Of a DNA stretch of 34,016 bases, positions 17,303 through 29,860 are shown in pieces (position 1 is the first letter of the stretch; each line of letters opens with the position of its first letter). A model generated the notes under the pieces. The model had not been told where the DNA came from and made no database searches. It was given only the letters and a program-made list of their open reading frames with translations. The DNA comes from a bacterium. Lineage in GTDB: Bacteria; SZUA-79; Acidulodesulfobacterales; Acidulodesulfobacteraceae. Where the stretch lies: NCBI GenBank assembly GCA_021798015.1, contig JAJZYP010000011.1, positions 1 to 34,016 on the forward strand, written 5' to 3'. The translations under genes and the position numbers were made by a program.

Positions 17303-17381
17303 GAACTTTTTTATGAATTTAAAATAAAAATTTAGTTTTATGCACCTTATAAAATTTAATCGGGGATTTAAACTGTTAAAC

Positions 17382-17433
17382 TGGTGCCGAGAGGCGGAAT
17401 CGAACCGCCGACACGAGGATTTTCAGTCCTCTG
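17382..17433. repeat. attL: displaced 3' end of tRNA-Phe
   Basis: Identical over 52 bases to 29785-29836. It holds the anticodon stem-loop, T arm, acceptor 3' strand and CCA of tRNA-Phe but no 5' half, so it is not a functional tRNA; it marks the left end of the element. Confidence 0.95.
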
Positions 17434-17487
17434 TCTTAATTTATAACTAACTGATATTATTAAATAATTAAACGATATTTAAAATAT

Positions 17488-17508
17488 GGTAGTAATATAG
17501 TAGTAAAC
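17488..17508. repeat. Paired GTAGTAA sites at left end (candidate integrase arm sites)
   Basis: Two copies of the GTAGTAA motif, 17489-17495 and 17500-17506, lie 55 bases inside the left end. The same motif, again in a close pair, lies in the integrase leader at the right end. Tyrosine integrases commonly bind such arm repeats beside the core att site. Confidence 0.5.
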
Positions 17509-18359
17509 TAAATATTCTTATATAATACGCAGCACCCTTCTTTAAATAACATTTCCAACGGTATTCCTATCCTCTTTTCAACCTCGGCACTAGAGCAATC
17601 GAAAGAATTTTCCAACAACACTTGAACTATATGATTAGCATCCCTTTTAGAAAAGAATTTAACTAATCTAACCGCATTGACGACATTGGCGTTCATTTTG
17701 CTTTCAGTAATTATTCTTTTCAGAGCTTCTTCATTGGCTTTTTGCTTGTGAGGCTTTGCCTCCGGCCGCTTGAATGTTTTAGTCATCGTCCTGAAATCCC
17801 GTCCGTTTACGCCCGATAACGAATTATTAAAAAGCTTGGCTATATTGTAATATGATACGCCGTTTTTAAGCAAAAATTCAATATCTTTTCTTGGGTCAAT
17901 GTAAATCTTTTTTAGGAATTGACCATACATAAAATATATATAGTTAGACGATAATTTAAGTTTTTCATCTTTACAAATATCGTCAAGATAATCCTTAACC
18001 GCAAAAAAATCCGACTCCTTTGAGAAATCATAAAAATATTTTTGGGACAAGAGAGTATGTATTAAGCTGTTATCGGTGATTTTATACTTTTTAAACAACT
18101 CATCCCATTTTTTATAATCTATTTTTCTTGCTTTAATAATTTTGGCAAATTCCCTCACCCTTTCATCGGATAAATCCATGCAGGAAATAAATTTTTTGTA
18201 AAGGCTTGGCTCTTTTCTCAAACTCTTTTCCTTCTTCTCTTTTTTCCTTAATTCAAGAACTTTTAAATCCTTGTATCCTAAACCAAGATAATCGGCAATA
18301 TATCCAACTTTTAATCCGGCTGCATAAAGTTTGTCGGCAATATACTCGTATTTTATCAT
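17508..18359 (-). CDS. Unknown helical protein with N-terminal HTH-like segment, divergent from alpA
   Basis: No family recognised. The ATG at 18359 is chosen over the longer frame (18389) because GGAG lies 7 bases upstream of it. The 283-aa protein begins with YIADKLYAAGLKVGYIADYL, which fits a helix-turn-helix, then a charged coil (KKEKKEKSLRKE) and many amphipathic helices; the C-terminal half repeats ideas of short helix-turn-helix units (NGVSYYNIAKLFNNS). It is transcribed away from the AlpA gene with a 67-base shared intergenic region, the usual position for an island's master regulator. A repressor or replication-control role is inferred from this layout only. Confidence 0.65.
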   Translation of the reverse strand: MIKYEYIADKLYAAGLKVGYIADYLGLGYKDLKVLELRKKEKKEKSLRKEPSLYKKFISCMDLSDERVREFAKIIKARKIDYKKWDELFKKYKITDNSLIHTLLSQKYFYDFSKESDFFAVKDYLDDICKDEKLKLSSNYIYFMYGQFLKKIYIDPRKDIEFLLKNGVSYYNIAKLFNNSLSGVNGRDFRTMTKTFKRPEAKPHKQKANEEALKRIITESKMNANVVNAVRLVKFFSKRDANHIVQVLLENSFDCSSAEVEKRIGIPLEMLFKEGCCVLYKNI

Positions 18360-18426
18360 TTTTGAACTCCAAAATTGGTAAAAATACAACCTATCATAAC
18401 CTCTTAAAACATTTTATCATAAATTT

Positions 18427-18618
18427 ATGAACAATAATGAAGAAAAACTATACGGCATGAATGATGCGGCAGAATATTTAGGAATCTGCTACCGAACTAT
18501 GCAAAATATCGTTTATGCCAGAGAGATAGGATTCATAAGAATAAGAAAATATTACAAGTTTCGTGAATCCGATCTTAAAAAATATTTAGAAAAGAATTAT
18601 GTAAAACCAGTCAAATGA
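18427..18618 (+). CDS. AlpA/excisionase-type HTH protein
   Basis: A 63-aa DNA-binding protein with the MerR/AlpA-type winged helix: LYGMNDAAEYLGICYRTMQN at the N terminus (helix-turn-helix), then IGFIRIRKYYKFRESDLKKYL (wing and following helix). Proteins of this type control excision or the main promoter of integrative elements. The ATG at 18427 has only a weak upstream Shine-Dalgarno. It lies just ahead of the primase gene and divergent from the putative regulator, as in Gram-negative phage-inducible islands. Confidence 0.85.
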   Translation: MNNNEEKLYGMNDAAEYLGICYRTMQNIVYAREIGFIRIRKYYKFRESDLKKYLEKNYVKPVK

Positions 18619-18652
18619 TTTTTATGCATAATTCTTTTCATTAGAGGCATAA

Positions 18653-19555
18653 ATGAAAATAGATGGGTTAAGAAAAGTAGGACTTAATGAAATCATGATT
18701 AGCTTTGGTTATGAAAGAGATGGAAAGCAAAGCGATTTGCGCCGTAGCATTTATCATACGGATATGGGGAAAATTAGCATTATGGATCCCAAGTTTTATA
18801 ATTTTTCTTCAGGAAACGGCGGGGGCGGTGCAATCGATTTAGCAATGCATCTAAAAAACTGCTCTTTCATTGAAGCTTGCAAATTTTTAAATAATAACTA
18901 CACGGAAAAAACTACAACTACTCGGAAAAAAACAATATCAAACAATATATACCATATACCTAATATGCTTATGCCCGAAAGGAATGACTCTAAAATCAAT
19001 ATCGTATTTGATTATCTTGTTAACAATAGAAAAATACCTTCTAATTTTGTCAATTCATTGATATTGCACAATGCAATATATGCGAACAAGTACGGCTCGG
19101 TGGTTTTCAGACATTGTTCCTTTGTGCCGGAATTAGATGGCGAATATAGAGTGAATGGCGCGACTATAAGGGGAACTTATAATAAATTCAAGCAAACTAT
19201 TGGAAATAAAGACGAGGGTTTATTTTGGTTCGGGAAAAATGTCAAAGATGCAAAAAAGGTTATTTTGGCTGAATCCCCGATTGATATTATTTCATATTTC
19301 TGTTTAAAAAGCGGCTCATCTGATAATTGCTACATAAGCCTTTCAGGGGTTTCTTTTCCGAGCAGGCTAAAAGAACTTTTACGGTTAAAAAATATTATAC
19401 TGGCGCTGGATAATCCCGATTTTGAAAAGAACATGACCGCAAAAACGACTAATTTAAAATTAGAAAAAGAAATAAAAGAAATAAGTAAATTTGTTAAAAG
19501 AGAACTTCCATGCAATAAGGATTGGAATGATGACTTAATTTATAAAATGGGATGA
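18653..19555 (+). CDS. Toprim primase-like protein (DUF3991/Toprim type)
   Basis: Likely replication primase of the element. The N-terminal part has YHTDMGKISI-type strands followed by FYNFSSGNGGGGAIDLAMHL (about residues 55-72), the region that carries the zinc finger in DnaG; here the zinc cysteines are missing. The C-terminal part holds a Toprim domain: VILAESPIDIISY with the acidic residue Glu207, and IILALDNPD with Asp253 and Asp256. GAGG precedes the ATG. The next gene starts 4 bases after its stop and encodes a helicase-like protein, completing a minimal primase-helicase module. Confidence 0.8.
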   Translation: MKIDGLRKVGLNEIMISFGYERDGKQSDLRRSIYHTDMGKISIMDPKFYNFSSGNGGGGAIDLAMHLKNCSFIEACKFLNNNYTEKTTTTRKKTISNNIYHIPNMLMPERNDSKINIVFDYLVNNRKIPSNFVNSLILHNAIYANKYGSVVFRHCSFVPELDGEYRVNGATIRGTYNKFKQTIGNKDEGLFWFGKNVKDAKKVILAESPIDIISYFCLKSGSSDNCYISLSGVSFPSRLKELLRLKNIILALDNPDFEKNMTAKTTNLKLEKEIKEISKFVKRELPCNKDWNDDLIYKMG

Positions 19556-19558
19556 AAA

Positions 19559-20935
19559 ATGCTTGAAAAACTTGTAGGAGAGAAACTTAAAAATGATTTA
19601 ACGGCAAAAAGTGCTGACCGATTGCTGACCGATTTGTCAGCGCCGCAACAGCAAGCGGGAGTTGGAGTTCATAGAAATATTCCCGCCGCTGACATAGGGG
19701 GTGCAAATAGGGCAAAAAGACATCAATCCCGCAATATCATTGAATTGTTGTCTAAAAAACCCTTGTCAAAAGACGCAAAAAGCACCGTAAAAGCGTATAA
19801 TTTAATCAAAAATCAGCTAAATTGGCGCGGAAACTTGGCAATTCCCCCTGTATCTTTTTTAGAAACCGTAACTGCTGTTTTCAAAAACGAAACCGATATT
19901 GCGTTAGAGTTGCCATTCTTTGCTGGATTAAATTTTATTGCCGCTCACCTGTTATATTTAAACGTTAGTATTAACTTTTCCGACCAAATTATTAAGCCGG
20001 ATATTTGGACTATAATTTTATCCGAATCCGGTAGCGCAAAGACTTTTGCAAATAACGTCTTCGAGAAAGCTATTGATATAAAAAATCTCTTCGATACAGG
20101 AATACAATCGTCGGCTAAGTTTATCGAAGAATTGCAGAAAAATAATAATGGCTTTTGGATACGCGACGAGTTTGCCCAGCTTTTGAAGGCAATGAAAACG
20201 CAGTCATACTTAGAAGAATTAAAAGACTACCTGCTTAAAATCTATGACAATAAAACAATTATGCGCAAAACCTTAAATCGTGAAATTATCGTTGAAAATC
20301 CAGCTTTAGTCTTGTTTGCCCTAAACGTATATTCCACTTATCTTCAAAATATTTCTTTCGAGGATATATTAGACGGTTTCGCCCAAAGATTAAACTACGT
20401 TATTGCGAAACAAGACCCTGAACGCCCCGAACTATCCGTCGCATTATATCCTTTCAAGCTGTTAAGAGAAACGGTAAAGAAGTCATGGAAGAAGATAAAG
20501 TTTCCTCGAAAGGACAAAACATATATCTTAGGTAAGGAAGCTGTTAAAGCATTTGAGGAATCATTTTACTCCTATGCCGCAACCGAAGCAGGAAAACTTC
20601 CTGCGTCCTTTCTGCGCAGGACACTGTTTAAGTCTATAAAATATTCACTTATTTATCATATTATTTTAAAAAAAGCTAATAAAAAAGAAATCGACGCAGA
20701 AGATATAACTTGGGCGATGAGAATTATATTACTGCATATTTCGGATGTTAAGGAAGTGTTGGAAAATTATGGCTTTTCTGATTTGGAAAAAACAATTCAG
20801 AAAGTCGAAAACTTAAAGAAAAAGTTAGCGGCTCAGGGGAAACCAATAAAAACAAGGGATATTATATCTAATGTTAAAGAGATTAGATCGGTTCCAGAAG
20901 CTAAAGCAATTCTTGAAATTATTTATCAAACGTGA
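19559..20935 (+). CDS. DUF3987-like replicative helicase/ATPase
   Basis: A 458-aa protein with a RecA-like core. The Walker A-like loop is ESGSAKT (residues 156-162, in ILSESGSAKTFAN), and the Walker B-like acidic pair is in WIRDEFAQLL (Asp203, Glu204). FAQRLNYVIAK supplies a candidate arginine finger or sensor. The N-terminal 90 residues are low in motif and contain a Gln/Ala-rich stretch (SAPQQQAGVGVHR). The first gene overlap is close (3-base gap) to the primase, so the two are almost certainly expressed together to start replication of the excised element. Confidence 0.8.
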   Translation: MLEKLVGEKLKNDLTAKSADRLLTDLSAPQQQAGVGVHRNIPAADIGGANRAKRHQSRNIIELLSKKPLSKDAKSTVKAYNLIKNQLNWRGNLAIPPVSFLETVTAVFKNETDIALELPFFAGLNFIAAHLLYLNVSINFSDQIIKPDIWTIILSESGSAKTFANNVFEKAIDIKNLFDTGIQSSAKFIEELQKNNNGFWIRDEFAQLLKAMKTQSYLEELKDYLLKIYDNKTIMRKTLNREIIVENPALVLFALNVYSTYLQNISFEDILDGFAQRLNYVIAKQDPERPELSVALYPFKLLRETVKKSWKKIKFPRKDKTYILGKEAVKAFEESFYSYAATEAGKLPASFLRRTLFKSIKYSLIYHIILKKANKKEIDAEDITWAMRIILLHISDVKEVLENYGFSDLEKTIQKVENLKKKLAAQGKPIKTRDIISNVKEIRSVPEAKAILEIIYQT

Positions 20936-20979
20936 GGTCGATGCGAATTATCATTAATATTTAAAGGAAGGAAGTTAAA

Positions 20980-21393
20980 ATGGAAATGAAAGAAAAAAAT
21001 AATATTACGGTTTACGTTGCAGATTTTGACGAGCGATATTTTTATTTAGTTTCTTCAGACCCTATGGAAGAATATTATCGGCATGACGGTTATAATTTCA
21101 TTTTACCTAAAACTAAGGCTTGCCTTAAGGAATTTCCATGTCAGTTTAAGGAAATAAACGCATACATCGAAAAAATTGCCGGGAGGAGAGTTTACCTATC
21201 CCAAGTGCATTGGTTATATATGAAAAATCTGATAAAAGACGAGCTCGGCCTTGATGTTAAAATCAAAAAACGTTATCCGGGTATTCTTACGGTAGCGGAA
21301 CTTATAACGCTGAACCAAAAAATAGATAAAGCTGCGTTAAAAAAACTCTCTAAAAACTGCTCGGAAAAGATTTACATAAAATCCGCCAAGTAA
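20980..21393 (+). CDS. Unknown protein of the replication module (137 aa)
   Basis: No family recognised. A strong Shine-Dalgarno (AAAGGAAGGAAG) lies ahead of the ATG. The first half is strand-rich with aromatic residues (ITVYVADFDERYFYLVSS), and the second half is helical and basic (YLSQVHWLYMKNLIKDELGLDVKI, then LKKLSKNCSEK). No cysteine pair motif, signal or membrane segment. It is the last gene of the plus-strand replication cluster before the structured noncoding region. Confidence 0.65.
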   Translation: MEMKEKNNITVYVADFDERYFYLVSSDPMEEYYRHDGYNFILPKTKACLKEFPCQFKEINAYIEKIAGRRVYLSQVHWLYMKNLIKDELGLDVKIKKRYPGILTVAELITLNQKIDKAALKKLSKNCSEKIYIKSAK

Positions 21394-21479
21394 AAGCTAT
21401 TTTTATTTTTTGCTCCGTTCAATAGAAACAAAAGATATAAAAAATCGACTTGTCTAACGCTGATAATTTTCAATACTAC

Positions 21480-21508
21480 TTTCGAAATCTCTAAAAAATT
21501 CATATAAA
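21480..21508 (+). promoter_or_regulatory. Possible promoter of the structured RNA
   Basis: TTTCGA (21480-21485), a 17-base spacer and TATAAA (21503-21508). The -35 is poor, so this is tentative; its predicted start lies just before the first hairpin at 21529. Confidence 0.35.
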
Positions 21509-21514
21509 ACAGGC

Positions 21515-21838
21515 GATATATAAATGTGCTATCAGATTGATAGAAGTCGATGGTGATTCTGCGATAGAAAGGTTTTTAAATACCCAACCGCTTTCGCTTC
21601 CTTTGGCGTCAAAGGAAGTAGGGTTCGGGACAACGTCCCGACATAATATCTTTAAACCATCGTTTTTCGCCGGAGTGCACCGCAAGCCGCAAGTTGTTTA
21701 AGCCCGCTTGCCTAGTTTGAGCAATGAAGCGGGTTAAAAAGCACGGAGCAAGAAAAACGATAACAACTGCCGCCTCCTTCAGTTTGAGCGGTAGCGATAA
21801 TTTTTACGATAGTAAAAATGACAAACTGAGGGAGGGGG
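21515..21838 (+). ncRNA. Candidate structured noncoding RNA with pseudoknot
   Basis: No credible gene fills this stretch, yet it is full of long stems: 21529-21534/21538-21543; 21597-21605/21610-21618 (9 bp, 4-base loop); 21625-21631/21635-21641 (7 bp); 21701-21709/21727-21735 (one G-U); and 21773-21786/21822-21835 (14 bp, one U-G) enclosing 21800-21807/21812-21819 (8 bp). A 10-bp helix 21659-21668/21752-21761 and a 7-bp helix 21692-21698/21762-21768 interlock as an H-type pseudoknot with adjoining 3' strands. The wobble pairs are G-U only if the plus strand is the RNA, which sets the orientation. I know no RNA family to assign; edges are approximate. Confidence 0.6.
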
Positions 21839-21891
21839 GATGAAAGGCACAAAATACATAATTTTATAAAAGTGATTACTATTTTTTCAAT

Positions 21892-21919
21892 TTGATTTTT
21901 TTTAAAAATATGATATTAT
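21892..21919 (+). promoter_or_regulatory. Sigma-70-type promoter of the second recombinase leader
   Basis: TTGATT (21892-21897), a 16-base spacer, TATTAT (21914-21919). Expected start near 21926. This leaves an untranslated leader of about 630 bases before the recombinase ATG at 22558. Confidence 0.55.
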
Positions 21920-21925
21920 AAAAAC

Positions 21926-22557
21926 ATTGGTCAATTCATCTGCGATTCTGCGCTTTAATTGGCGGCGCTTTAAAAGGAATCACATATCTTCGTAAAAAGA
22001 TTAAAACTTACCTATTTTAGAAAGAAAATCAAAAACTTTCCAATCTGAAGCAAACGGATTATTAAATTTGCAAATATTTGCTCTATCGGCTTGTAAAATC
22101 CTGTCGTTCTACGGTGATTTTTAAGTTTATCTTATGATAAGCAATGAAAATACCTATTGAACCTAAGATTTTATAAAGGAAAATTTATTCCTGCCCGGAA
22201 AAAGAAACATTATATTCCGGGTTGCCTAAAAGTAAATACCTTTCTAAAGGAAGCCGAAATCTTCCATAGTTATCCTGATTAACTCTAAAAAACCAGACAA
22301 AGACTTGCCGGGTCTATAACACGGAAATTAACTTTATAAAACATATAAGGATTATTGGCTTTATCCCTTTTGTTTAATCATCTGAGAGCTGGGATTGTCT
22401 ACCCTGTAAAAAGCCATTTAAAAAAGACATTATCTACCTTAAAGCAGGGACTATAAAGTTCCAAGGACATATACATAATGTAATAAAGCAAATTAAAAAT
22501 GCCGCTGCCGGGATCTTGTCTAAAAATTAACAAATTATTTTGAAGGAGGAAATACAA
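21926..22557 (+). ncRNA. Long structured leader or large noncoding RNA upstream of recombinase gene
   Basis: About 630 bases without a credible reading frame. Complementary segments include 21998-22002/22042-22046 enclosing 22020-22024/22036-22040; 22056-22060/22097-22101 enclosing the palindrome GCAAATATTTGC (22070-22081); 22127-22131/22136-22140; 22194-22200/22215-22221 (CCCGGAA stem); 22249-22253/22261-22265; 22357-22362/22410-22415; and a three-tier stem 22427-22433/22475-22481, 22437-22440/22463-22466, 22447-22451/22458-22462 with a G-U pair on the plus strand. No T-run terminator separates it from the recombinase, so it may be its 5' leader or an independent RNA. Confidence 0.45.
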
Positions 22558-23436
22558 ATGACAAAGATAGAATATAAGATAAATCAGGAACTAAAGCAAA
22601 TAGAACATTTCCATAAAATGGATTCTCCCCTATCCGTTGTAAGTAACAAAAGCGACCACGATATAAGGCAGGATATGAGGCGTATAGCAAAAGACGCTCG
22701 AAACTTCGGAATCGGCGTTACCGCAAATCAAAAAGGCGATATTGGAAAATGGAGCAACGGGAATATTTCTAAAATGGTGGAATACTATAAAGCCTATGGG
22801 CTAAAGGACGCAACAATCATTAATTACGTCTCTTCCTTGAGGTCCTTTTTGCATGAAACCGGGAAAACGAATATTAGCATTTCCAACGGCGAACTTGGAC
22901 TTAAAAGGGAAATGGAATACAAGGACAAAAGCCTAAACGCAAAGGGAGTGGATATACACAAAAAACTCGCATATTTCAAAGAAAAAGATGCCAACGTTTA
23001 TGCCCAGCTAAAAATATCTTCCATAGCCGGATTAAGGAAGGAAGAAAGCGTCCACGCCGCACTTGCGCTGGCCAAAGGATACGATATCCTTAAGGATGAT
23101 AAGCTAATCCTTAAGGGGTCATGGTGTAAAAACGGCAGGCCGAGGGAGATAAAACTTTCACCAGAAAAGGTTAAAGAATTTGACGAGCTTAAGAAGTACG
23201 CAATGAACGGCGATTATAATAAAAGCAGAAATCTAAAACAGGAAATGAACCACTTGGGAAATTCTATTAAGAACGCCGGATTTAACATGCACGCAGTCAG
23301 ACATGGGGTAGCGCAGGAAAGATATGCCGAACTCATAAATAAAGGTTTTGACGAAAAAGGGGCTAAAACGGCGGTTTCGCAAGAACTTGGGCATAACAGG
23401 GATTATGTTACGAAGGTTTATCTCGGCGGAAAATAA
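22558..23436 (+). CDS. Tyrosine recombinase (integrase-domain protein), second in element
   Basis: A 292-aa DNA breaking-rejoining enzyme. The catalytic set is visible: Arg in IAGLRKEES, HAVRH (HXXRH) near residue 242, LGHNRDYVTKVYL with the likely nucleophile Tyr close to the C terminus. The N-terminal 120 residues are a core-binding domain (DIRQDMRRIAKDARNFG, then ATIINYVSSLRSFLHE). The ATG at 22558 is preferred to a TTG at 22540, because GAAGGAGG (22543-22549) lies in the gap between them. It is unlike the integrase at the right end, so it probably does a different job, such as dimer resolution or control of a second site. Confidence 0.85.
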   Translation: MTKIEYKINQELKQIEHFHKMDSPLSVVSNKSDHDIRQDMRRIAKDARNFGIGVTANQKGDIGKWSNGNISKMVEYYKAYGLKDATIINYVSSLRSFLHETGKTNISISNGELGLKREMEYKDKSLNAKGVDIHKKLAYFKEKDANVYAQLKISSIAGLRKEESVHAALALAKGYDILKDDKLILKGSWCKNGRPREIKLSPEKVKEFDELKKYAMNGDYNKSRNLKQEMNHLGNSIKNAGFNMHAVRHGVAQERYAELINKGFDEKGAKTAVSQELGHNRDYVTKVYLGGK

Positions 23437-23512
23437 CAATAATAAGGTAATTATTTTTTCCATTACCAAAAATTTATAATTTTATATTCAAAAAAAATGG
23501 TAAAATGAGGTT

Positions 23513-23518
23513 TATAAT
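23513..23518 (+). promoter_or_regulatory. Consensus -10 box ahead of the restriction gene
   Basis: TATAAT at 23513-23518, 38 bases before the restriction endonuclease start, with no good -35 box 16-18 bases upstream. The 120 bases from 23437 to 23556 otherwise hold a weak GGTAAT/ATTACC hairpin after the recombinase gene. Confidence 0.35.
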
Positions 23519-23556
23519 TTTAAATCTTTATTAAATTAATTTATTAGTGAGCGGAA

Positions 23557-24390
23557 ATGTCCGAAAAAGATAATTTTAAAATATTATTAAAAGAATTTGC
23601 ATCAACAATAACCGAACATTTAAGTTCCGGAGACGGGCAATGGACGGTTAAAGGGTTTATTGATATATATAAAAATGTCTATACCATTTCCTCTGATACG
23701 AAAATTGTATCTAAAATTTTAGAGATTCATCTTTTTCCAAAAATTCTAACTTTTGCCGAGCAAATTGGATATAAGATAGTGCTTGCAGACCATCAGAACT
23801 ATTATCCAGATTTAACATTTATTAAAAAATCCGATGAAAAAATAAAGTTTGCGGTGGATTTTAAAACAACTTATAGAAAACCTGAAAATAAAAACCTTTG
23901 CAATGGTTTTACTTTGGGTTCACATGGTGAATATTTTATTAACAGAGAAAATAAAAAGAATATACAATTTCCTTATGGCGAATATAATGGGCATTTTTGT
24001 TTCGGCATAATATATGATAGAGCGGATGGCTCGACTATTGATGAAACTAAAGTATATAAAGTTGATAATCTGCAATCTATTGTTTCAGTTGTTAAGAATT
24101 TTCAATTTTTTGTGGTTGAAAAATGGAAAATAGCTAGCGATAGAGGCGGAAGCGGGAATACCGCAAATATAGGAAGCATTGTTTATATAAAGGATATTAT
24201 TGAAGAAAATGGCATGTTTTCAAGATTAGGTGAAAAATGGTTCGATGATTATTGGATAAATTATAACAAAATAACAATTATTAACGACGCCGGCAAACCA
24301 GAGAAAATTAATAATCTCTATAAATTTGTAAAATACAGAGGTGGAGATGTATCGCTAATTATTCAAAAACATAACGGAGTAAAAAAATGA
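23557..24390 (+). CDS. EcoRV-type type II restriction endonuclease
   Basis: Predicted to cut DNA at GATATC. The 277-aa protein matches EcoRV along its length by recall: SDTK near residue 47 with Glu56, the catalytic set Asp85 (YYPDLTF), Asp101 and Lys103 (VDFKTTY), and the DNA-recognition loop GSGNTANIGS (198-207) against GSGNTTNIGS in EcoRV, plus HQNYYPD against QNHYPD for the minor-groove loop. All residues I know to contact the target in EcoRV appear kept. It is about 30 residues longer than EcoRV. The stop overlaps the methyltransferase start by 4 bases (ATGA), so toxin and antidote are co-translated. Confidence 0.9.
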   Translation: MSEKDNFKILLKEFASTITEHLSSGDGQWTVKGFIDIYKNVYTISSDTKIVSKILEIHLFPKILTFAEQIGYKIVLADHQNYYPDLTFIKKSDEKIKFAVDFKTTYRKPENKNLCNGFTLGSHGEYFINRENKKNIQFPYGEYNGHFCFGIIYDRADGSTIDETKVYKVDNLQSIVSVVKNFQFFVVEKWKIASDRGGSGNTANIGSIVYIKDIIEENGMFSRLGEKWFDDYWINYNKITIINDAGKPEKINNLYKFVKYRGGDVSLIIQKHNGVKK

Positions 24391-25292
24391 TTGGCAATAA
24401 AATAATTGTTCCACCTATAAAAAGTCAGGGTATTAAAACGAAGCTTGTCCCGTGGATTAAATCTATCCTCCCACAAAAAACAGGCAGATGGATTGAGCCT
24501 TTTATGGGAACCGGCGTAGTCGCATTCAATACCGATTTTAAAGAAGCCTATCTTAGCGATATTAATCCGCATATAATTAATTTTTACAATGCAATAAAGA
24601 ATAAAGATATAACGCCTCATCTCGTAAGGTTTTTTCTTGAAAAAGAGGGAAATATATTAAAAAATAGAGGGGAAGAACATTATAAGTTTATTAGAGACAG
24701 GTTTAATAAATATTTTGACTCGCTGGATTTTTTGTTTCTTTCAAGAGCTGGGTTTAACGGCATGATAAGATTTAATAAAAAAGGTTGCTGGAATATTCCG
24801 TTTTGTAAAAAAATAAATAGGTTCAACAAATCTTATATAACAAAAATAGTTAATCAGGTTTCACGCGTATCTAACCGCATTACTTCCAATTGGATATTTG
24901 AATGCACGGATTTTAGAGAAATAATAAAAAAAGCAAGCAAGAATGATATTATATATTGTGATCCGCCTTATCATGGTCGTTATGTTGATTATTATAATGG
25001 ATGGTCGGATGATGACGAAAATGATTTATTTGAATTATTAAGCATCACGAAAGCGAAGTTTATTCTATCTGCATGGCATCATAATAATTATAGAAGTAAT
25101 TCAATGATAGAAAAATATTGGAATATCTTTAATATAATTACAAAAGAACATTATTATCATTCCGGAGGTAGGATAGAAAATAGAAATTCCATTGTAGAAG
25201 CTCTTGTTTACAATTTTGAACTTAATTTTTCAAAGCCTGTCGAAAAGTCCTTATTTTTGGGTGTTGGAAGTATGTCAAAAATAAGTTTATAA
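24387..25292 (+). CDS. Adenine-N6 DNA methyltransferase, D12/Dam class (M.EcoRV type)
   Basis: Protects the host by methylating adenine in the sequence cut by the neighbouring endonuclease. The SAM-binding motif is EPFMGTGVVAFN (about residues 35-47) and the catalytic motif DPPY is at residues 192-195 (YCDPPYHGRY). PPIKSQGIKTKLVPWI at the N terminus is typical of Dam/M.EcoRV class enzymes, which bind the GAT part of their target. Length 301 aa is normal. The ATG overlaps the endonuclease stop. EcoRV itself has divergent genes, so the arrangement differs here. Confidence 0.92.
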   Translation: MIGNKIIVPPIKSQGIKTKLVPWIKSILPQKTGRWIEPFMGTGVVAFNTDFKEAYLSDINPHIINFYNAIKNKDITPHLVRFFLEKEGNILKNRGEEHYKFIRDRFNKYFDSLDFLFLSRAGFNGMIRFNKKGCWNIPFCKKINRFNKSYITKIVNQVSRVSNRITSNWIFECTDFREIIKKASKNDIIYCDPPYHGRYVDYYNGWSDDDENDLFELLSITKAKFILSAWHHNNYRSNSMIEKYWNIFNIITKEHYYHSGGRIENRNSIVEALVYNFELNFSKPVEKSLFLGVGSMSKISL

Positions 25293-25304
25293 CTAAAGTC
25301 AATA

Positions 25305-26273
25305 ATGTTTTTTAGATCGTGTCAAGATTTTCAAATAAATATGACAGAAAAATTAAAAAAACCGCCGGCAATAGAAGAAACTAAACAACAAATAACTATT
25401 AATGATTTAATCGATTTTTTTGATAATTTTTTAAAAATTCTTTCATCTTCAATCGATGATATTTTAAATTATGCTCAATCTAATCATATAAAAGATATTA
25501 AACAGTATGAGAGCATTATTTTAAAACAAATCAACAAAAGATCAACAAAAAAGGAAATAAATGATTTTTTAAATATTGCAAAAAATGATTTGAAAGATTA
25601 TAAAAACTTAATGGAGAAGAAAAGCTATCCTAATGCAATTTATCACCTTCAACAATCTGTTGAAAAAACAATAAAAAGTATGTGTTTCTTCTTATTTGTT
25701 GATTTTAAACCAAGATCAGTTGGGCATGACTTTTCTAATATAATGCTCTTGCTTAAAAAGGATGGGGTATTGTCTGATTTATTAAAAGAATTTATTATAA
25801 GGTTCGAAAACAAATTAAATAAATATTTTAATTACAAAATTAAAATTTTTGGGAACACAAAAATAGATTTATCTAATTTTTGGATTGATATTGACAATAA
25901 AATTTTTTTAAGAGATTTTAAAAAACGAATGATAGAAATATTTTCAGAAAATTCAGCAGGGGTATCGTTTTTTTTATTAATGTTTCTCAATTTTAAGAAG
26001 CAGATAAAGGAAACATCTGATGGCGGCAATAAAATTAGTTTGTATAATATATTATATAGTTCGGAACTATTTATTTTTCATATGATTTTATCCCCTCACG
26101 AGGATTCAACTCGATATCCAAATAATGATAAAAGTAAAATGGGGCCGGGAGATTATACTGAAAAATCCCAGATAGTTAGTTTTTCCAATTATATTAGCAT
26201 GGAATTAGAAGAAATAATCGAACATATTAATAAAATAATATTAAATGTAAAGTCTCAAGTAAATATTATTTAG
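25305..26273 (+). CDS. HEPN-like domain protein of the defence cargo
   Basis: A 322-aa protein without a name I can give. Residues about 95-150 match the HEPN pattern: a helix DLKDYKNLMEKKSYPNAIYHLQQSVEKTIKSM, then SVGHDFSNIMLLLKK, as in HEPN proteins of toxin and abortive-infection systems. A clear RNase RX4-6H motif is not seen; RSVGH is the nearest. The C-terminal 150 residues are helical with FFLLMFLNFKKQ. No good Shine-Dalgarno precedes ATG 25305; the ATG at 25341 is an alternative start. It lies 12 bases after the methyltransferase stop, so it is probably co-transcribed with the restriction-modification genes. Confidence 0.6.
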   Translation: MFFRSCQDFQINMTEKLKKPPAIEETKQQITINDLIDFFDNFLKILSSSIDDILNYAQSNHIKDIKQYESIILKQINKRSTKKEINDFLNIAKNDLKDYKNLMEKKSYPNAIYHLQQSVEKTIKSMCFFLFVDFKPRSVGHDFSNIMLLLKKDGVLSDLLKEFIIRFENKLNKYFNYKIKIFGNTKIDLSNFWIDIDNKIFLRDFKKRMIEIFSENSAGVSFFLLMFLNFKKQIKETSDGGNKISLYNILYSSELFIFHMILSPHEDSTRYPNNDKSKMGPGDYTEKSQIVSFSNYISMELEEIIEHINKIILNVKSQVNII

Positions 26274-26374
26274 ATCAGGCTTTCAAGAAGAATATTAATC
26301 TAAATTCGTCAATAATAAATTATAACTTTTATAAATAGTTATAAATTTAAAATAACTTAAATTCAGGAAGCATT

Positions 26375-28147
26375 ATGAAAGCAGAAGCTAAAGCTCTAAA
26401 TTTTATTATTAATGAAGGAATAATTAAGGTTCCATTTTTTCAAAGGTCATATGTTTGGGATAAAGAAAATTGGGAGGAATTATTTGAAGATTTAGCCGAA
26501 TTTAATAATTATCATTTTCTTGGATCAATAATTTTTAAACAACAAAAAGTTTCAACAGGTGATCCCAAAGAAGTTTCATTGATTGATGGGCAACAAAGAT
26601 TAGCAACTATCTGTATCTTATTAAAAGCGATTTACGATAATTTGGATGATGATAAAAAAAAGAATTTATATGGTAGACTTGAATCTTTTCTTTATTTCAA
26701 GAAAGATGAAACTGGTAGTGAATTAGAAGAAAAAATTAAACTTTCTAAAAATGATAGAGAAGATTATAAAGAAATAATATTAAATGGCAATATAAGTGAT
26801 TCAACTAAAAAAACGGGATTAATTGGATGTTATAATCATTTTAATAAAAAACTTAAGAATAAAATTATTGAAGATAAAACGATTCTCGATAAATTAATAA
26901 ATAAAATTTTTAGTTCAAATTACAAATTATTTGTTGTTATTGATCTTGAAGCGGAGGATAATGAACAGGAAATTTTCGATACGATAAACAGTGCCGGGGT
27001 GAGATTAAGCAGTGCAGATATAATTAAAAACGCCTTATTCCAAAGAATATTAGAATTAGATACACTGGAAATTAAATTAACAGATTTATTATATAAAAAA
27101 TATTGGGAAGATATTTTCCAATCAGATAAAGAAAAAGAGAATGAATGGCTAAAAGAAAAAAATACTGGCAGGGTAAAAAGAGACAATATTGAGATATTAT
27201 TTCATTCATACGCGGTATTAAAAAGTTTTTTTGATCCTGAAAATGACAACTTATCTGACCTATCTTCTATATATAAAAAGGAATTACATAAATTTAAGAC
27301 CATAGCTGAGATAGAGAAATTTTTTTTGATAGAACTCACCAAATATGCAGATATTTTCTATAATAATCTTATTTCAGAAATTGAATTATTGGAATTTGAC
27401 AATCAGATTGACAATCAGATTCATCGTACCTTACATATTATTAATACTTTAGAACTGTCAACATTTTATCCATTAATACTCTATATATTGCATAATATTA
27501 AAGCAGAAGATAGAGAAAAATACTTAAAAGCATTAGAAAAGTATGTTATCAGAAGGGCGATTGCCAATAAAACAACTAAAAATTATAACAAAGAAATAAA
27601 AAATTTTATTAAAGATATAAACTCACTTATCTCGGCATCAAATGATGATACTAATGATACTGAAATATATAGCGGGCTACAAAATATATCAAATAATAAA
27701 GCAAACCTAATTTTATTTTGGATAGAATTATATAGAAGAAAAGATTCTAAATATGACATGAAGGAATTAAAATATACCTATACTTTAGAGCATATATTGC
27801 CCACCAAATGGGAGCAACATTGGTCCGACATCCCTGTTTATGACGAAAATGAAAATGAAATTACTAACGAGGGGGAAAAGAAAAGAGTAAGGAATCAATT
27901 ATTAAATTCAATCGGAAATATGACATTGCTGAGATCCAGTCTAAATTCTTCTATTAGAAATAATAAATTTGATATAAAGATAAATGGATCCAGCGGAAAA
28001 AAAGGGATTAAAGACTATGCCGATTTATCTATTACCAAAGAAATTTTGCCTTCTTCAAGTATTCATTCTTGGGATGAACGTAATATTAGAGAACGAACCA
28101 AGAAATTATTTGAGGAATTTAAAAATATTTGGTCAAAAGGTTTATAA
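26375..28147 (+). CDS. DUF262/DUF1524 (GmrSD-like) NTP-dependent nuclease
   Basis: A single-chain member of the GmrSD/BrxU/SspE type of DNA nucleases, which act against incoming DNA, often with modified bases. The N-terminal DUF262 domain has PFFQRSYVW (residues 20-28) and the nucleotide-handling motif DGQQR (71-75). The C-terminal DUF1524 HNH-like nuclease has YTLEHILPTKW (His473) and IGNMTLLRSSLNSSIRNNKF. Length 590 aa is complete. AGGA precedes the ATG. Its substrate is not evident. The gene is AT-richer than its neighbours, in line with its recent gain, and it lies about 100 bases after the HEPN-like gene. Confidence 0.88.
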   Translation: MKAEAKALNFIINEGIIKVPFFQRSYVWDKENWEELFEDLAEFNNYHFLGSIIFKQQKVSTGDPKEVSLIDGQQRLATICILLKAIYDNLDDDKKKNLYGRLESFLYFKKDETGSELEEKIKLSKNDREDYKEIILNGNISDSTKKTGLIGCYNHFNKKLKNKIIEDKTILDKLINKIFSSNYKLFVVIDLEAEDNEQEIFDTINSAGVRLSSADIIKNALFQRILELDTLEIKLTDLLYKKYWEDIFQSDKEKENEWLKEKNTGRVKRDNIEILFHSYAVLKSFFDPENDNLSDLSSIYKKELHKFKTIAEIEKFFLIELTKYADIFYNNLISEIELLEFDNQIDNQIHRTLHIINTLELSTFYPLILYILHNIKAEDREKYLKALEKYVIRRAIANKTTKNYNKEIKNFIKDINSLISASNDDTNDTEIYSGLQNISNNKANLILFWIELYRRKDSKYDMKELKYTYTLEHILPTKWEQHWSDIPVYDENENEITNEGEKKRVRNQLLNSIGNMTLLRSSLNSSIRNNKFDIKINGSSGKKGIKDYADLSITKEILPSSSIHSWDERNIRERTKKLFEEFKNIWSKGL

Positions 28148-28172
28148 TGTGCAATAATCTATAACGTCTATA

Positions 28173-28541
28173 TTAAAGTTCAAAGCAACTTTCAAAAAAC
28201 CAATTGGCATAATTTATTCCTACCTTGTCAACTATTAATCTACCGTTTTTTATAAGGCTACCAAGTGTTCCATTAATTTTATATATACGCCCGTTTTGTG
28301 CTATCGCATTCAACGATGTAGATTTTGTAATAGTATGCGCCTTAACGATATCGCCGGAACATTCTTCTTTCAAAATCTGTGGCGATAGATAATATTTATG
28401 ACCAAAAGCTTTTTAAAAAGTTTTAATAGTCTCATTTATTTTTGTATAACTACCATCAGATTTATTTAAATGACACTTTTTATATTTTTTACCGGAGCCG
28501 CACCAGCATGGTTCATTTCTGCCAAGCTTTTTCATGGACAT
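28173..28541 (-). pseudogene. SEC-C motif protein gene broken by an in-frame stop
   Basis: The frame starts at ATG 28541 (AAAGG upstream) with a SEC-C zinc motif, [19 protein letters not shown] (CXCX8CH), runs 42 codons and meets TAA at 28413-28415. Beyond it the same frame continues without shift as KAFGHKYYLSPQIL and ECSGDIVKAHTITKSTSL, which from memory resembles the body of longer SEC-C proteins, then stops at 28173. The gene is thus interrupted, and its C-terminal part is missing. Alternatively the first 42 codons are a functional short SEC-C peptide. Confidence 0.65.
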
Positions 28542-28581
28542 AATGTTAATCCTTTAATATTTTAAATATTATAAATCAAAA

Positions 28582-29637
28582 TTACTCAATTTTTCCCCCC
28601 CACACCTCATCCACAGCTTTTTTAAGCGTATCCGGCAATAGATGGCTATACCTTTTCGTCATCTGCGTTGTCCTGTGTCCTAACAGCTCCCCCGTAATAT
28701 ACAGGCTCGTCCCGCCCATTACCATTTTGCTTGCGAATACGTGCCTTAAGTCGTGGATACGCAAATCCTTCAACCCCGCATTTCTGCACGCCGTATGAAA
28801 AGAACGCTTAAAATCGGTTAATTTAGCCCCGTTGTTATTAAACACGTATAAACAGTCTTGAATTTTATTTATGCCGCTTAAGAGAGATTTTAGCGGTTTT
28901 GAAACAGGAATATACCGGTCGTATTTTGTTTTCGTCCCTTTTATTGCTATAACGCCGGTCTTTAAGTCCACGTCGTCCCATTTAAGATTTAACGCCTCTC
29001 CCTTGCGGCAACCGGTATAAATCAAAAAAGTTATTAAATCTTTAGTCAGCTTATTCGTGGCGCCTGCGATAAGCTTATTAATATCTTCATCGGAAAGGGT
29101 TTTAAGGCGGGATAATTCGTTAAGTTTTTTTATGCCGATTGCCGGATTTTGCGAAATATATTCCCGTTCTATACAGAAATTAAAAAAGTTAGACAATGTA
29201 ACTATTTCAAGATTAACCGAACGATAATTCATTTCGCCGTCCTTTTTACCTTGATTTTTGGATAATCCTATTAATTCTAATTTTCTTGAAAGCTGATAAT
29301 TCTTGATATCGTTAACCGTAATTTCTTTTAAATTTTTATTCTGAAAAACCGGTAAAAAATGCTTGCCGGCAATACCTTTCCGTCTAACCGTATCTTTCTC
29401 GTTATTTATGCGTGAATATTTTAAGTATTCTTCCCAAACGGTAGTAAAGTTTACTACCGTCTTTTTTAAAAACGGCAGGTCGTTCTTTTCCCGTGCTATA
29501 TCGGTTTGTTTAGCTTCGGCAATTAGTTTTGCGGACTGCTTATCGGTAGTTTTAGTGGTTCCCTGGTATTTTTTTCCTTCGTAGGTTATGCAGTAATACC
29601 ATATATCGTTGCCTTTCTTGCGGTATATTGAAGCCAT
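28582..29637 (-). CDS. int: Tyrosine integrase of the tRNA-Phe element
   Basis: Catalyses insertion and excision at tRNA-Phe. The 351-aa protein has an N-terminal arm-binding/AP2-like domain (SIYRKKGNDIWYYCITYEGKK), a SAM-like core-binding domain, and the catalytic set Arg in YTGCRKGEAL, HDLRHVFASKM and LLGHRTTQMTKRYSHL with the nucleophile Tyr near the C terminus. A longer frame starts at 29712, but the ATG at 29637 has GAGGGG at the right distance and matches the usual start of the family; the extra 25 residues would be read through two GTAGTAA repeats. It lies next to the intact tRNA. Confidence 0.93.
   Translation of the reverse strand: MASIYRKKGNDIWYYCITYEGKKYQGTTKTTDKQSAKLIAEAKQTDIAREKNDLPFLKKTVVNFTTVWEEYLKYSRINNEKDTVRRKGIAGKHFLPVFQNKNLKEITVNDIKNYQLSRKLELIGLSKNQGKKDGEMNYRSVNLEIVTLSNFFNFCIEREYISQNPAIGIKKLNELSRLKTLSDEDINKLIAGATNKLTKDLITFLIYTGCRKGEALNLKWDDVDLKTGVIAIKGTKTKYDRYIPVSKPLKSLLSGINKIQDCLYVFNNNGAKLTDFKRSFHTACRNAGLKDLRIHDLRHVFASKMVMGGTSLYITGELLGHRTTQMTKRYSHLLPDTLKKAVDEVWGGKIE
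29438..29460. repeat. Perfect 11-bp inverted repeat built on GTAGTAA, inside int
   Basis: ACGGTAGTAAA, one base, then its exact complement. It carries two inverted copies of the motif that occurs in pairs at both ends of the element. On the plus strand it is followed by C and T6, so it could also work as an antisense terminator. It lies in coding sequence. Confidence 0.5.
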
Positions 29638-29653
29638 TTTACCCCTCATATAA

Positions 29654-29671
29654 GGTAGTAATGGTAGTAAA
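29654..29671. repeat. Paired GTAGTAA sites in the int leader
   Basis: GGTAGTAAT (29654-29662) and GGTAGTAAA (29663-29671) in direct tandem, just upstream of the integrase Shine-Dalgarno. Binding by the integrase here could both form the attR arm and repress its own gene. Confidence 0.5.
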
Positions 29672-29784
29672 TAAGTAGGAAAATTTTTACATTTTGCCTC
29701 ATTTTTACTCATAATTCTACATTTTTATTCATATTAAAGTCAAGAGGAAAATCTTAGAAATGCCTTATTTACTGCGGTTTAAAG

Positions 29785-29860
<76 letters not shown>

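What the first reader, a model, noticed from the sequence alone, without database searches (positions are those of the whole stretch)
21926..22557. About 630-base structured leader before the second recombinase
A good promoter (21892-21919) precedes a long untranslated stretch with ordered nested stems, including a three-tier stem (22427-22481) with a G-U pair on the plus strand. In size and setting it recalls large ornate RNAs of mobile elements such as GOLLD or ROOL, though I see no specific match.
Basis: partly seen in the sequence, partly recalled or inferred. Interest (0 to 1): 0.62.

Follow-up and report, generated by a model that had tools for sequence, protein, structure and literature searches.

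The report
Large structured RNA before recombinase gene
In mobile DNA islands of an uncultured bacterial group, the gene for a DNA-recombining enzyme is almost always preceded by a roughly 600-letter folded RNA that matches no known RNA family and has evolved together with the enzyme, which makes a working link between the two directly testable.

Summary
The stretch at about 21926-22550 has homologues in 18 places in 11 of 30 genomes of the window's family, and carries clear compensatory base changes: 18 pairs changed on both sides against 8.7 in shuffles, 0 of 500. It has a conserved promoter, reaches the ribosome-binding site with no terminator found, and matches no Rfam family. Of 14 near-complete genes of the downstream recombinase (PF12835 type), 13 have it upstream, whole or up to a contig edge, and one has a remnant. 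RNA and recombinase distances correlate (r 0.83). More distant recombinases of the family, in the same genomes and on proteobacterial plasmids, also have long noncoding leaders; one pseudoknot seems shared and covaries between clades (post hoc). GOLLD/ROOL membership is not met. Best reading: a recombinase-specific structured leader RNA, inside a 12.4-kb tRNA-Phe island with defence cargo, that gates the recombinase. An RNA-protein partnership is the bolder alternative. No transcript was seen, so function is inferred.

The parts
17376..29836 (.). integrative element (island) that holds the RNA; 58-bp direct repeats 17376-17433 and 29779-29836 are the tRNA-Phe attachment duplication
   Evidence: the repeat finder, 98% identical copies 12403 apart; tRNA-Phe 29785-29860; partial tRNA 17393-17449
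18653..20935 (+). primase/replication genes (DUF3991-Toprim_2; DUF3987)
   Evidence: Pfam, PHROGs DNA primase; same genes upstream in several related islands
20980..21393 (+). 137-aa protein (C1), family present in most related islands, no Pfam or PHROGs match
   Evidence: clustering
21582..21641 (+). hairpin 1 (ACCC..GGGTTCGGG..CCCGA), terminator-like; also at places without the RNA (G000:C166, G023:C69, G011:C44)
21659..21761 (+). hairpin A: long imperfect hairpin with internal-loop strands CGCCGGAG / CGGAGCAAG; arms vary between homologues
   Evidence: motif search in 30 genomes shows it also occurs away from the recombinase
21770..21839 (+). hairpin B: CTCCTTCAGTTTG / CAAACTGAGGGAG; arms vary in a complementary way between homologues
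21892..21919 (+). promoter, TTGATT-16-TATTAT
   Evidence: position conserved in homologues
21926..22550 (+). large structured RNA (leader of the recombinase gene)
   Evidence: conservation, covariation, covariance model
21942..21983 (+). P1, pairs 21942-21949 with 21976-21983; 5 of 8 pairs changed on both sides
22075..22238 (+). P4, long-range closing helix 22075-22081 with 22232-22238
22125..22142 (+). P5 hairpin; 4 of 6 pairs changed on both sides
22249..22265 (+). P6 hairpin (GGAAG-CTTCC / GCAAG-CTTGC / GCAGG-CCTGC); 3 of 5 pairs changed on both sides
22301..22315 (+). P8 hairpin AGACUU-GCC-GGGUCU with two invariant G-U pairs
22389..22429 (+). P10 hairpin 22389-22392 with 22403-22406, and pseudoknot of its loop 22396-22400 with 22425-22429
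   Evidence: cross-clade descriptor
22558..23436 (+). C0, 292-aa tyrosine recombinase of the Integrase_1 (PF12835) type; R160, K191, H245, R248, H279, Y288 invariant in 12 clade I copies
   Evidence: Pfam, alignments, fold match to Tn1549 Int, Cre and integron IntI
23557..28147 (+). cargo: EcoRV-like restriction enzyme, D12 methyltransferase, HEPN protein, GmrSD-like protein
28582..29712 (-). C2, the island's own Phage_integrase

Best explanation
The stretch is a large (about 600-nt) structured RNA made as the 5' leader of the message for the small tyrosine recombinase C0, from its own conserved promoter. Shown here: conservation, compensatory pairing, near-strict pairing with C0, co-divergence with C0. 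Inferred: that it is transcribed, and that it works in cis. Most likely step by step: transcription starts near 21925; the RNA folds into a 5' domain (P1-P3), a central branched domain closed by P4, and a 3' domain (P8, P10 and a pseudoknot) that ends about 110 nt before the ribosome-binding site. That 3' domain gates how much C0 is made, probably by switching between folds or by binding C0 itself, so that the recombinase is active only in some state of the island's life. The module hairpin A - hairpin B - RNA - C0 sits at a place where defence cargo is exchanged.
For: Homologues in 18 places in 11 of 30 family genomes. Covariation. G-U exceeds A-C cells 42 to 7 on the + strand, 16 to 7 without P8, as expected for an RNA read in the C0 direction. 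Folding z-scores are lower on the + than on the - strand in the 4 clade I leaders tested. No terminator-like site between RNA and C0. 13 of 14 near-complete clade I C0 genes have it directly upstream. RNA-C0 distance correlation r 0.83, 0 of 5000 permutations; mean pairwise identity equals that of the C0 gene (0.74 and 0.75). The gap upstream of C0-type genes is at least 400 bp in 15 of 17, against 1 of 26 other tyrosine recombinases of the same genomes.
Against: No RNA-seq, so a separate transcript or processing cannot be excluded. 600 nt is very long for a cis regulator. No known regulator class matches. No ligand, switch or anti-Shine-Dalgarno pairing was shown. The 5' domain is replaced in G010:C72 and G023:C6, so not all parts are needed. 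Long leaders on plasmids do not share the sequence.
Confidence: 0.5

Rival explanations
1. The RNA is a working partner of the recombinase: C0 binds it and the RNA-protein complex finds, holds or activates DNA sites, as ncRNA and protein do in other mobile elements.
For: Near-strict linkage to C0 and co-divergence. Size and highly conserved stretches outside the helices. Long leaders also precede many other members of this recombinase family: 8 of 11 non-rhizobial plasmid records examined have gaps of at least 350 bp. Cargo differs immediately downstream of the C0 catalytic tyrosine codon.
Against: No guide-like match between RNA and the C0 3' junction in 10 loci. Some family members have no leader (L096, L098). 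C0 shows an ordinary tyrosine recombinase fold with no confident extra domain. In the held library the searches listed no tyrosine recombinase with an RNA partner.
Confidence: 0.25
2. The pairing acts at the DNA level: the strand folds when single-stranded (transfer, replication or recombination), making a recombination or replication site beside the recombinase gene, like folded attC sites or the proposed ssDNA reading of the STAXI motif.
For: Hairpins A and B upstream of the promoter are also conserved and not obviously transcribed with it. The recombinase family is common on small plasmids. STAXI is a precedent near XerDC-type integrases (PMC2864571, passages).
Against: Excess of G-U over A-C cells on one strand. 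A conserved promoter placed exactly before the conserved region, which ends at the ribosome-binding site.
Confidence: 0.12
3. A free-standing ornate RNA of the GOLLD/ROOL sort that merely sits before the recombinase.
For: Size and complexity; mobile-element setting.
Against: No Rfam match; no own terminator; near-strict linkage to C0.
Confidence: 0.07
4. Ordinary sequence without structural function, conserved only because it hitch-hikes with C0.
For: Single-sequence folding of the window is weak.
Against: Covariation; invariant blocks while neighbouring cargo is unrelated.
Confidence: 0.03

Closest known systems
GOLLD and ROOL RNAs (large ornate RNAs of phages and prophages)
   Same: size about 600-800 nt, intricate structure, mobile-element setting
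   Different: no sequence or structure match; linked to one recombinase gene with no terminator found between; not in a tRNA array
STAXI motif (Ssbp, Topoisomerase, Antirestriction, XerDC Integrase; PMC2864571, passages read)
   Same: pseudoknot motif near integrases of mobile elements
   Different: STAXI is a tandemly repeated pseudoknot; not hit in the Rfam searches; here one pseudoknot inside a 600-nt RNA
Lacto-int RNA (named in the table of PMC2864571; passage read) and int-alpA RNA (name from recall, used as a term)
   Same: candidate RNAs beside integrase genes
   Different: other hosts and far smaller (size from recall); the Rfam searches hit no such family
IS110 bridge RNA (PMC11208158, listing and abstract start only)
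   Same: noncoding RNA encoded beside a recombinase
   Different: IS110 encodes another kind of recombinase (recall); no guide-like complementarity seen here
Integron integrase with attI/attC
   Same: tyrosine recombinase fold (2a3v among the best fold matches), conserved noncoding DNA beside the gene, exchangeable cargo next to it
   Different: recombinase reads towards the cargo; no array of attC-like sites shown; a long RNA-like stretch between the hairpins and the gene
Integrase_1 / Phage_int_SAM_2 recombinases on plasmids, e.g. beside mcr-4.3 in Shewanella (PMC9769806, passages read)
   Same: same protein family as C0; many records have long unannotated leaders
   Different: leaders share no alignable sequence with the window RNA

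Membership tests
GOLLD (Rfam) | match to the covariance model | tested here: not met
   no hit at gathering score nor in the permissive search
GOLLD (Rfam) | located near phage tRNA arrays | tested here: not met
   only one tRNA gene, the attachment tRNA-Phe, 7 kb away
ROOL (Rfam) | match to the covariance model | tested here: not met
ROOL (Rfam) | abundant discrete transcript | not testable with these tools
   no transcript data
group I / group II intron and all other Rfam 15 families | match to any family model | tested here: not met
   4227 models, only tRNA hits in the window; lax search gives 4 chance-level hits
structured RNA (general) | pairing kept through changes on both sides | tested here: met
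   18 pairs, 40 cells, 0 of 500 shuffles; 0 of 60 column shuffles
structured RNA (general) | is transcribed | not testable with these tools
   promoter conserved but no RNA data
cis-acting leader | same strand, directly before one gene, no terminator between | tested here: met
cis-acting leader | changes expression of that gene | not testable with these tools
   needs a reporter assay
RNA-guided recombinase (IS110-like) | RNA loops complementary to target or donor DNA | tested here: not met
   longest shared words at the C0 3' junction no longer than in random windows of the same locus, 10 loci; other sites not tested
RNA-guided recombinase (IS110-like) | protein of the IS110 recombinase family | tested here: not met
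   PF12835 match only; tyrosine recombinase fold
integron | array of attC sites | not tested
   only simple repeats in the element were searched; none attC-like was noticed
tyrosine recombinase | catalytic residues R, K, H, R, H/W, Y | tested here: met
   invariant R160, K191, H245, R248, H279, Y288 in alignment A2; assignment of roles from recall

The most novel reading that the evidence does not exclude
A whole family of tyrosine recombinases (PF12834/PF12835) works as a ribonucleoprotein: each recombinase is made from a message whose long 5' part folds into a lineage-specific large RNA that the recombinase needs for choosing or activating its DNA site, and the family uses this to exchange defence cargo at the 3' end of its own gene. 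It would be the first RNA-partnered tyrosine recombinase that I know of.
Probability: 0.17. Interest if true: 0.92.

Novelty: new variant of a known kind. Interest (0 to 1): 0.62.

Why it matters
Large structured bacterial RNAs are few and mostly of unknown function, because most offer no gene partner to test. This one comes with an obvious partner, a single small recombinase, in islands that carry restriction systems and other defences, and the same recombinase family with long leaders occurs on plasmids of culturable Proteobacteria. The question of what such RNAs do could therefore be tested in cultivable hosts with ordinary reporter and recombination assays.

Tried and rejected
Single-sequence folding energy as proof of structure: too weak for the window. 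Rfam lax search: four chance-level hits. Guide-like pairing with the C0 3' junction: none above random in 10 loci. One covariance model of the 3' half reaching distant leaders: it finds the clade I copies (14 strong matches, plus one marginal at E 0.047 in G028 of unknown worth) but nothing below E 0.38 in 32 other loci. Nucleotide profile against nine distant leaders: only a weak hit in L081, E 8e-4, beside minus-strand chance hits. Viral contigs: no C0 relative with one query, five remote ones with the profile A3, no RNA motif. Phages: one remote C0 relative in a bacterial draft record. Hairpin A as a recombinase-specific site: rejected, since it occurs elsewhere. Solved structures by sequence: none.

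Limits to keep in mind. The 13 aligned RNAs are those of 18 places that were long enough; dropped were G002:C16, G007:C13, G011:C133, G010:C86 and the second copy in G010:C72. Four of the 13 (G008, G003, G026, G000:C168) are 93-95% alike, so events are fewer than cells. The helices counted were picked on the same alignment. The cross-clade descriptor was written after seeing both clades: 6 of 6 clade I and 4 of 7 clade II leaders fit, 0 of 8 plasmid leaders, against 0.2-0.5% of shuffles with the strict form and 1.7-4% with the loose form needed for two of the clade I leaders. The control (26 loci) consists of the best PF00589 matches, which look like Xer-type genes, and the island integrases C2 also have gaps of 235-812 bp in 7 loci.

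Full report
What is there. In the held set its family, order and phylum each comprise the same 30 genomes. The named relatives are all 'MAG: bacterium isolate' records. I suspect an acid-mine-drainage lineage, but that is recall and untested. A 12.4-kb island lies in the window between 58-bp copies of the tRNA-Phe end, 17376-17433 and 29779-29836. It carries primase genes, a 137-aa protein, the noncoding region, a small recombinase C0 (PF12835), an EcoRV-like restriction system with further defence-like genes, and its own integrase C2.

Check of the observation. Folding of the window sequence alone is unimpressive. The decisive test is homology. The own genome has two more copies at 73-75% identity, and 11 of 30 family genomes have 18 matching places. 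In a first search of 99 genomes 38 gave matches, but most of those were short AT-rich matches to the promoter region and are not counted; the long ones are 67-84% identical to the window.

Structure. On a 13-sequence alignment (A4) I placed ten helices, one of them a pseudoknot. 95.0% of cells pair, against 33-44% when partners are slid by 1-3 columns. 18 of 57 pairs and 40 cells are changed on both sides, against 8.7 and 12.2 in shuffles, 0 of 500 reaching either; the measure 'further pair types' is not above shuffles (223 of 500). A search for covarying helices anywhere in the alignment gives four local ones, a number no shuffle of 60 reaches. The best are P1, P5, P6 and P10, for example GGAAG/CTTCC, GCAAG/CTTGC, GCAGG/CCTGC in P6 and CTGG/CCAG, TCGG/CCGA in P10. 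P8 keeps two G-U pairs in all 13. G-U exceeds A-C cells 42 to 7, or 16 to 7 without P8, which favours an RNA read in the direction of C0.

Link to the recombinase. Fourteen near-complete clade I C0 genes are known in the 30 genomes. Thirteen have the RNA directly upstream, in two cases cut by the contig start; the fourteenth (second copy in G010:C72, with an internal stop and a missing start) has only a remnant. The RNA without C0 was seen only where a contig ends (G000:C4, G011:C133, G010:C86) and as a partial copy in G002:C16. RNA and C0 distances over 11 loci correlate with r 0.83, none of 5000 permutations as high, and both have nearly the same mean identity, 0.74 and 0.75. The gap before C0-type genes is at least 400 bp in 15 of 17, against 1 of 26 other tyrosine recombinases in the same genomes; but the island integrases C2 also have 235-812 bp.

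Wider family. Clade II recombinases of the same genomes (25-29% identical in the alignment; clade II is my label) have noncoding leaders with the same order: hairpin A, hairpin B, a stretch of roughly 290-500 nt, then the gene (read by eye, clearest in L074, L080, L081, L085 and G014:C53). In four of seven clade II leaders a hairpin with its loop paired downstream and followed by TTAAA fits the clade I pseudoknot, with different but complementary letters: TGTCTTT/AAAGACA, AGATT/AATCT, AAATGTT/AACATTT, AAAAGTT/AACTTTT. The descriptor was written after the fact and is a lead, not a test. On plasmids, of 11 non-rhizobial records whose recombinase CDS was examined, 8 have a gap of 350 bp or more (L095, L140-L143, L145-L147; not L144, L096, L098). 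Seven rhizobial records have 778-2109 bp; five of these seven were chosen because their leader matched, so they are no independent sample, and an eighth, L153, has no annotated recombinase CDS. The rhizobial leaders show weak covariation: 4 helices against 1.0 expected, 1 of 100 shuffles as high. No clear sequence relation to the window RNA was found.

Cargo junction. Across 11 clade I loci, DNA identity is 0.77-0.84 up to the catalytic tyrosine codon, 0.64 in the next 12 bases and 0.31-0.38 beyond; the C-terminal tails differ. Cargo downstream includes EcoRV-like, type III, Tsp45I and Eco57I-like restriction genes, and a CRISPR-like repeat series in L042. This fits exchange of cargo at the 3' end of C0, but recombination by C0 was not shown.

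How it most likely works. I commit to a structured leader of the C0 message that gates C0 (confidence 0.5), with an RNA-protein partnership as the main rival (0.25). The promoter, the run-on to the ribosome-binding site and the absence of a terminator argue for cis. Size, conserved stretches outside the helices and co-divergence leave the partnership open. A guide-like role at the C0 3' junction was tested and not seen.

Known things. Rfam 15 has no match. GOLLD and ROOL differ in every feature tested (passages of PMC12286853, and of PMC7567579). STAXI is a precedent for pseudoknots beside integrases (passages of PMC2864571). PF12835 recombinases have been noted beside mcr-4.3 in Shewanella, without mention of a leader in the passages seen (PMC9769806). 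In the held library the searches listed no paper whose title or abstract start describes a structured RNA tied to a tyrosine recombinase; this is no proof that none exists.

Verdict. Real, conserved, structured and apparently undescribed; function inferred. Interest 0.62.

Noticed in passing
23410-23436 and homologous loci: Homology among clade I islands stops within about 12 bases after the C0 catalytic tyrosine codon; each island continues with different cargo and a different C-terminal tail.
   Followed up: partly
G018:C22:48859-49122 (L079), G027:C67:2968-3264 (L116), G021:C61 (L082), G000:C25 (L084), G024:C78 (L071): C-terminal fragments of C0 without the rest of the gene; L116 and L082 continue with the same downstream DNA. 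L084 and L071 are cut by contig ends.
   Followed up: partly
21582-21641; G000:C166:9065-9163; G023:C69:35651-35733; G011:C44:4914-4996: Hairpin 1 occurs at places without the RNA; its tail looks like a terminator.
   Followed up: partly
L173, L175, L176 (G004:C1, G011:C195, G028:C37): Hairpin A motif (CGCCGGAG..CGGAGCAAG, nested in L175) away from any C0; in L175 and L176 followed by a long perfect hairpin with TAAATACAAACAGAG arms. What it marks is unknown.
   Followed up: no
L042:1747-2030: Four near-identical repeats GTTTGCAATGCACTAATGAGAGGTTAA plus a decayed fifth, spaced 57-68 nt, right after C0: a CRISPR-like array inside the island.
   Followed up: no
L031:6247-7776 and L033:1436-2602: Between the 137-aa gene and the hairpins other islands carry a reverse transcriptase gene (RVT_1) or a weakly SIR2-like gene: a second variable site.
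   Followed up: no
window 23557-28147: EcoRV-like restriction enzyme (391 bits to Endonuc-EcoRV) with D12 methylase, a HEPN protein and a GmrSD-like protein as island cargo.
   Followed up: partly
L040:7284-7821 and L042:264-773: In these two copies the 5' domain of the RNA (P1-P3) is replaced by unrelated sequence while the rest is conserved.
   Followed up: no
L097, L148-L153, L099: Rhizobial plasmids carry a conserved leader with a perfect hairpin CCCTGTCACTACC/GGTAGTGACAGGG upstream of a PF12835-type recombinase; it contains short ORFs whose frame is not kept (read by eye).
   Followed up: partly
L140-L143, L146, L147: Unannotated stretches of 660-1330 bp before PF12835-type recombinases on Gallibacterium, Glaesserella, Shewanella, Pseudosulfitobacter, Pleionea and Salmonella plasmids.
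   Followed up: partly
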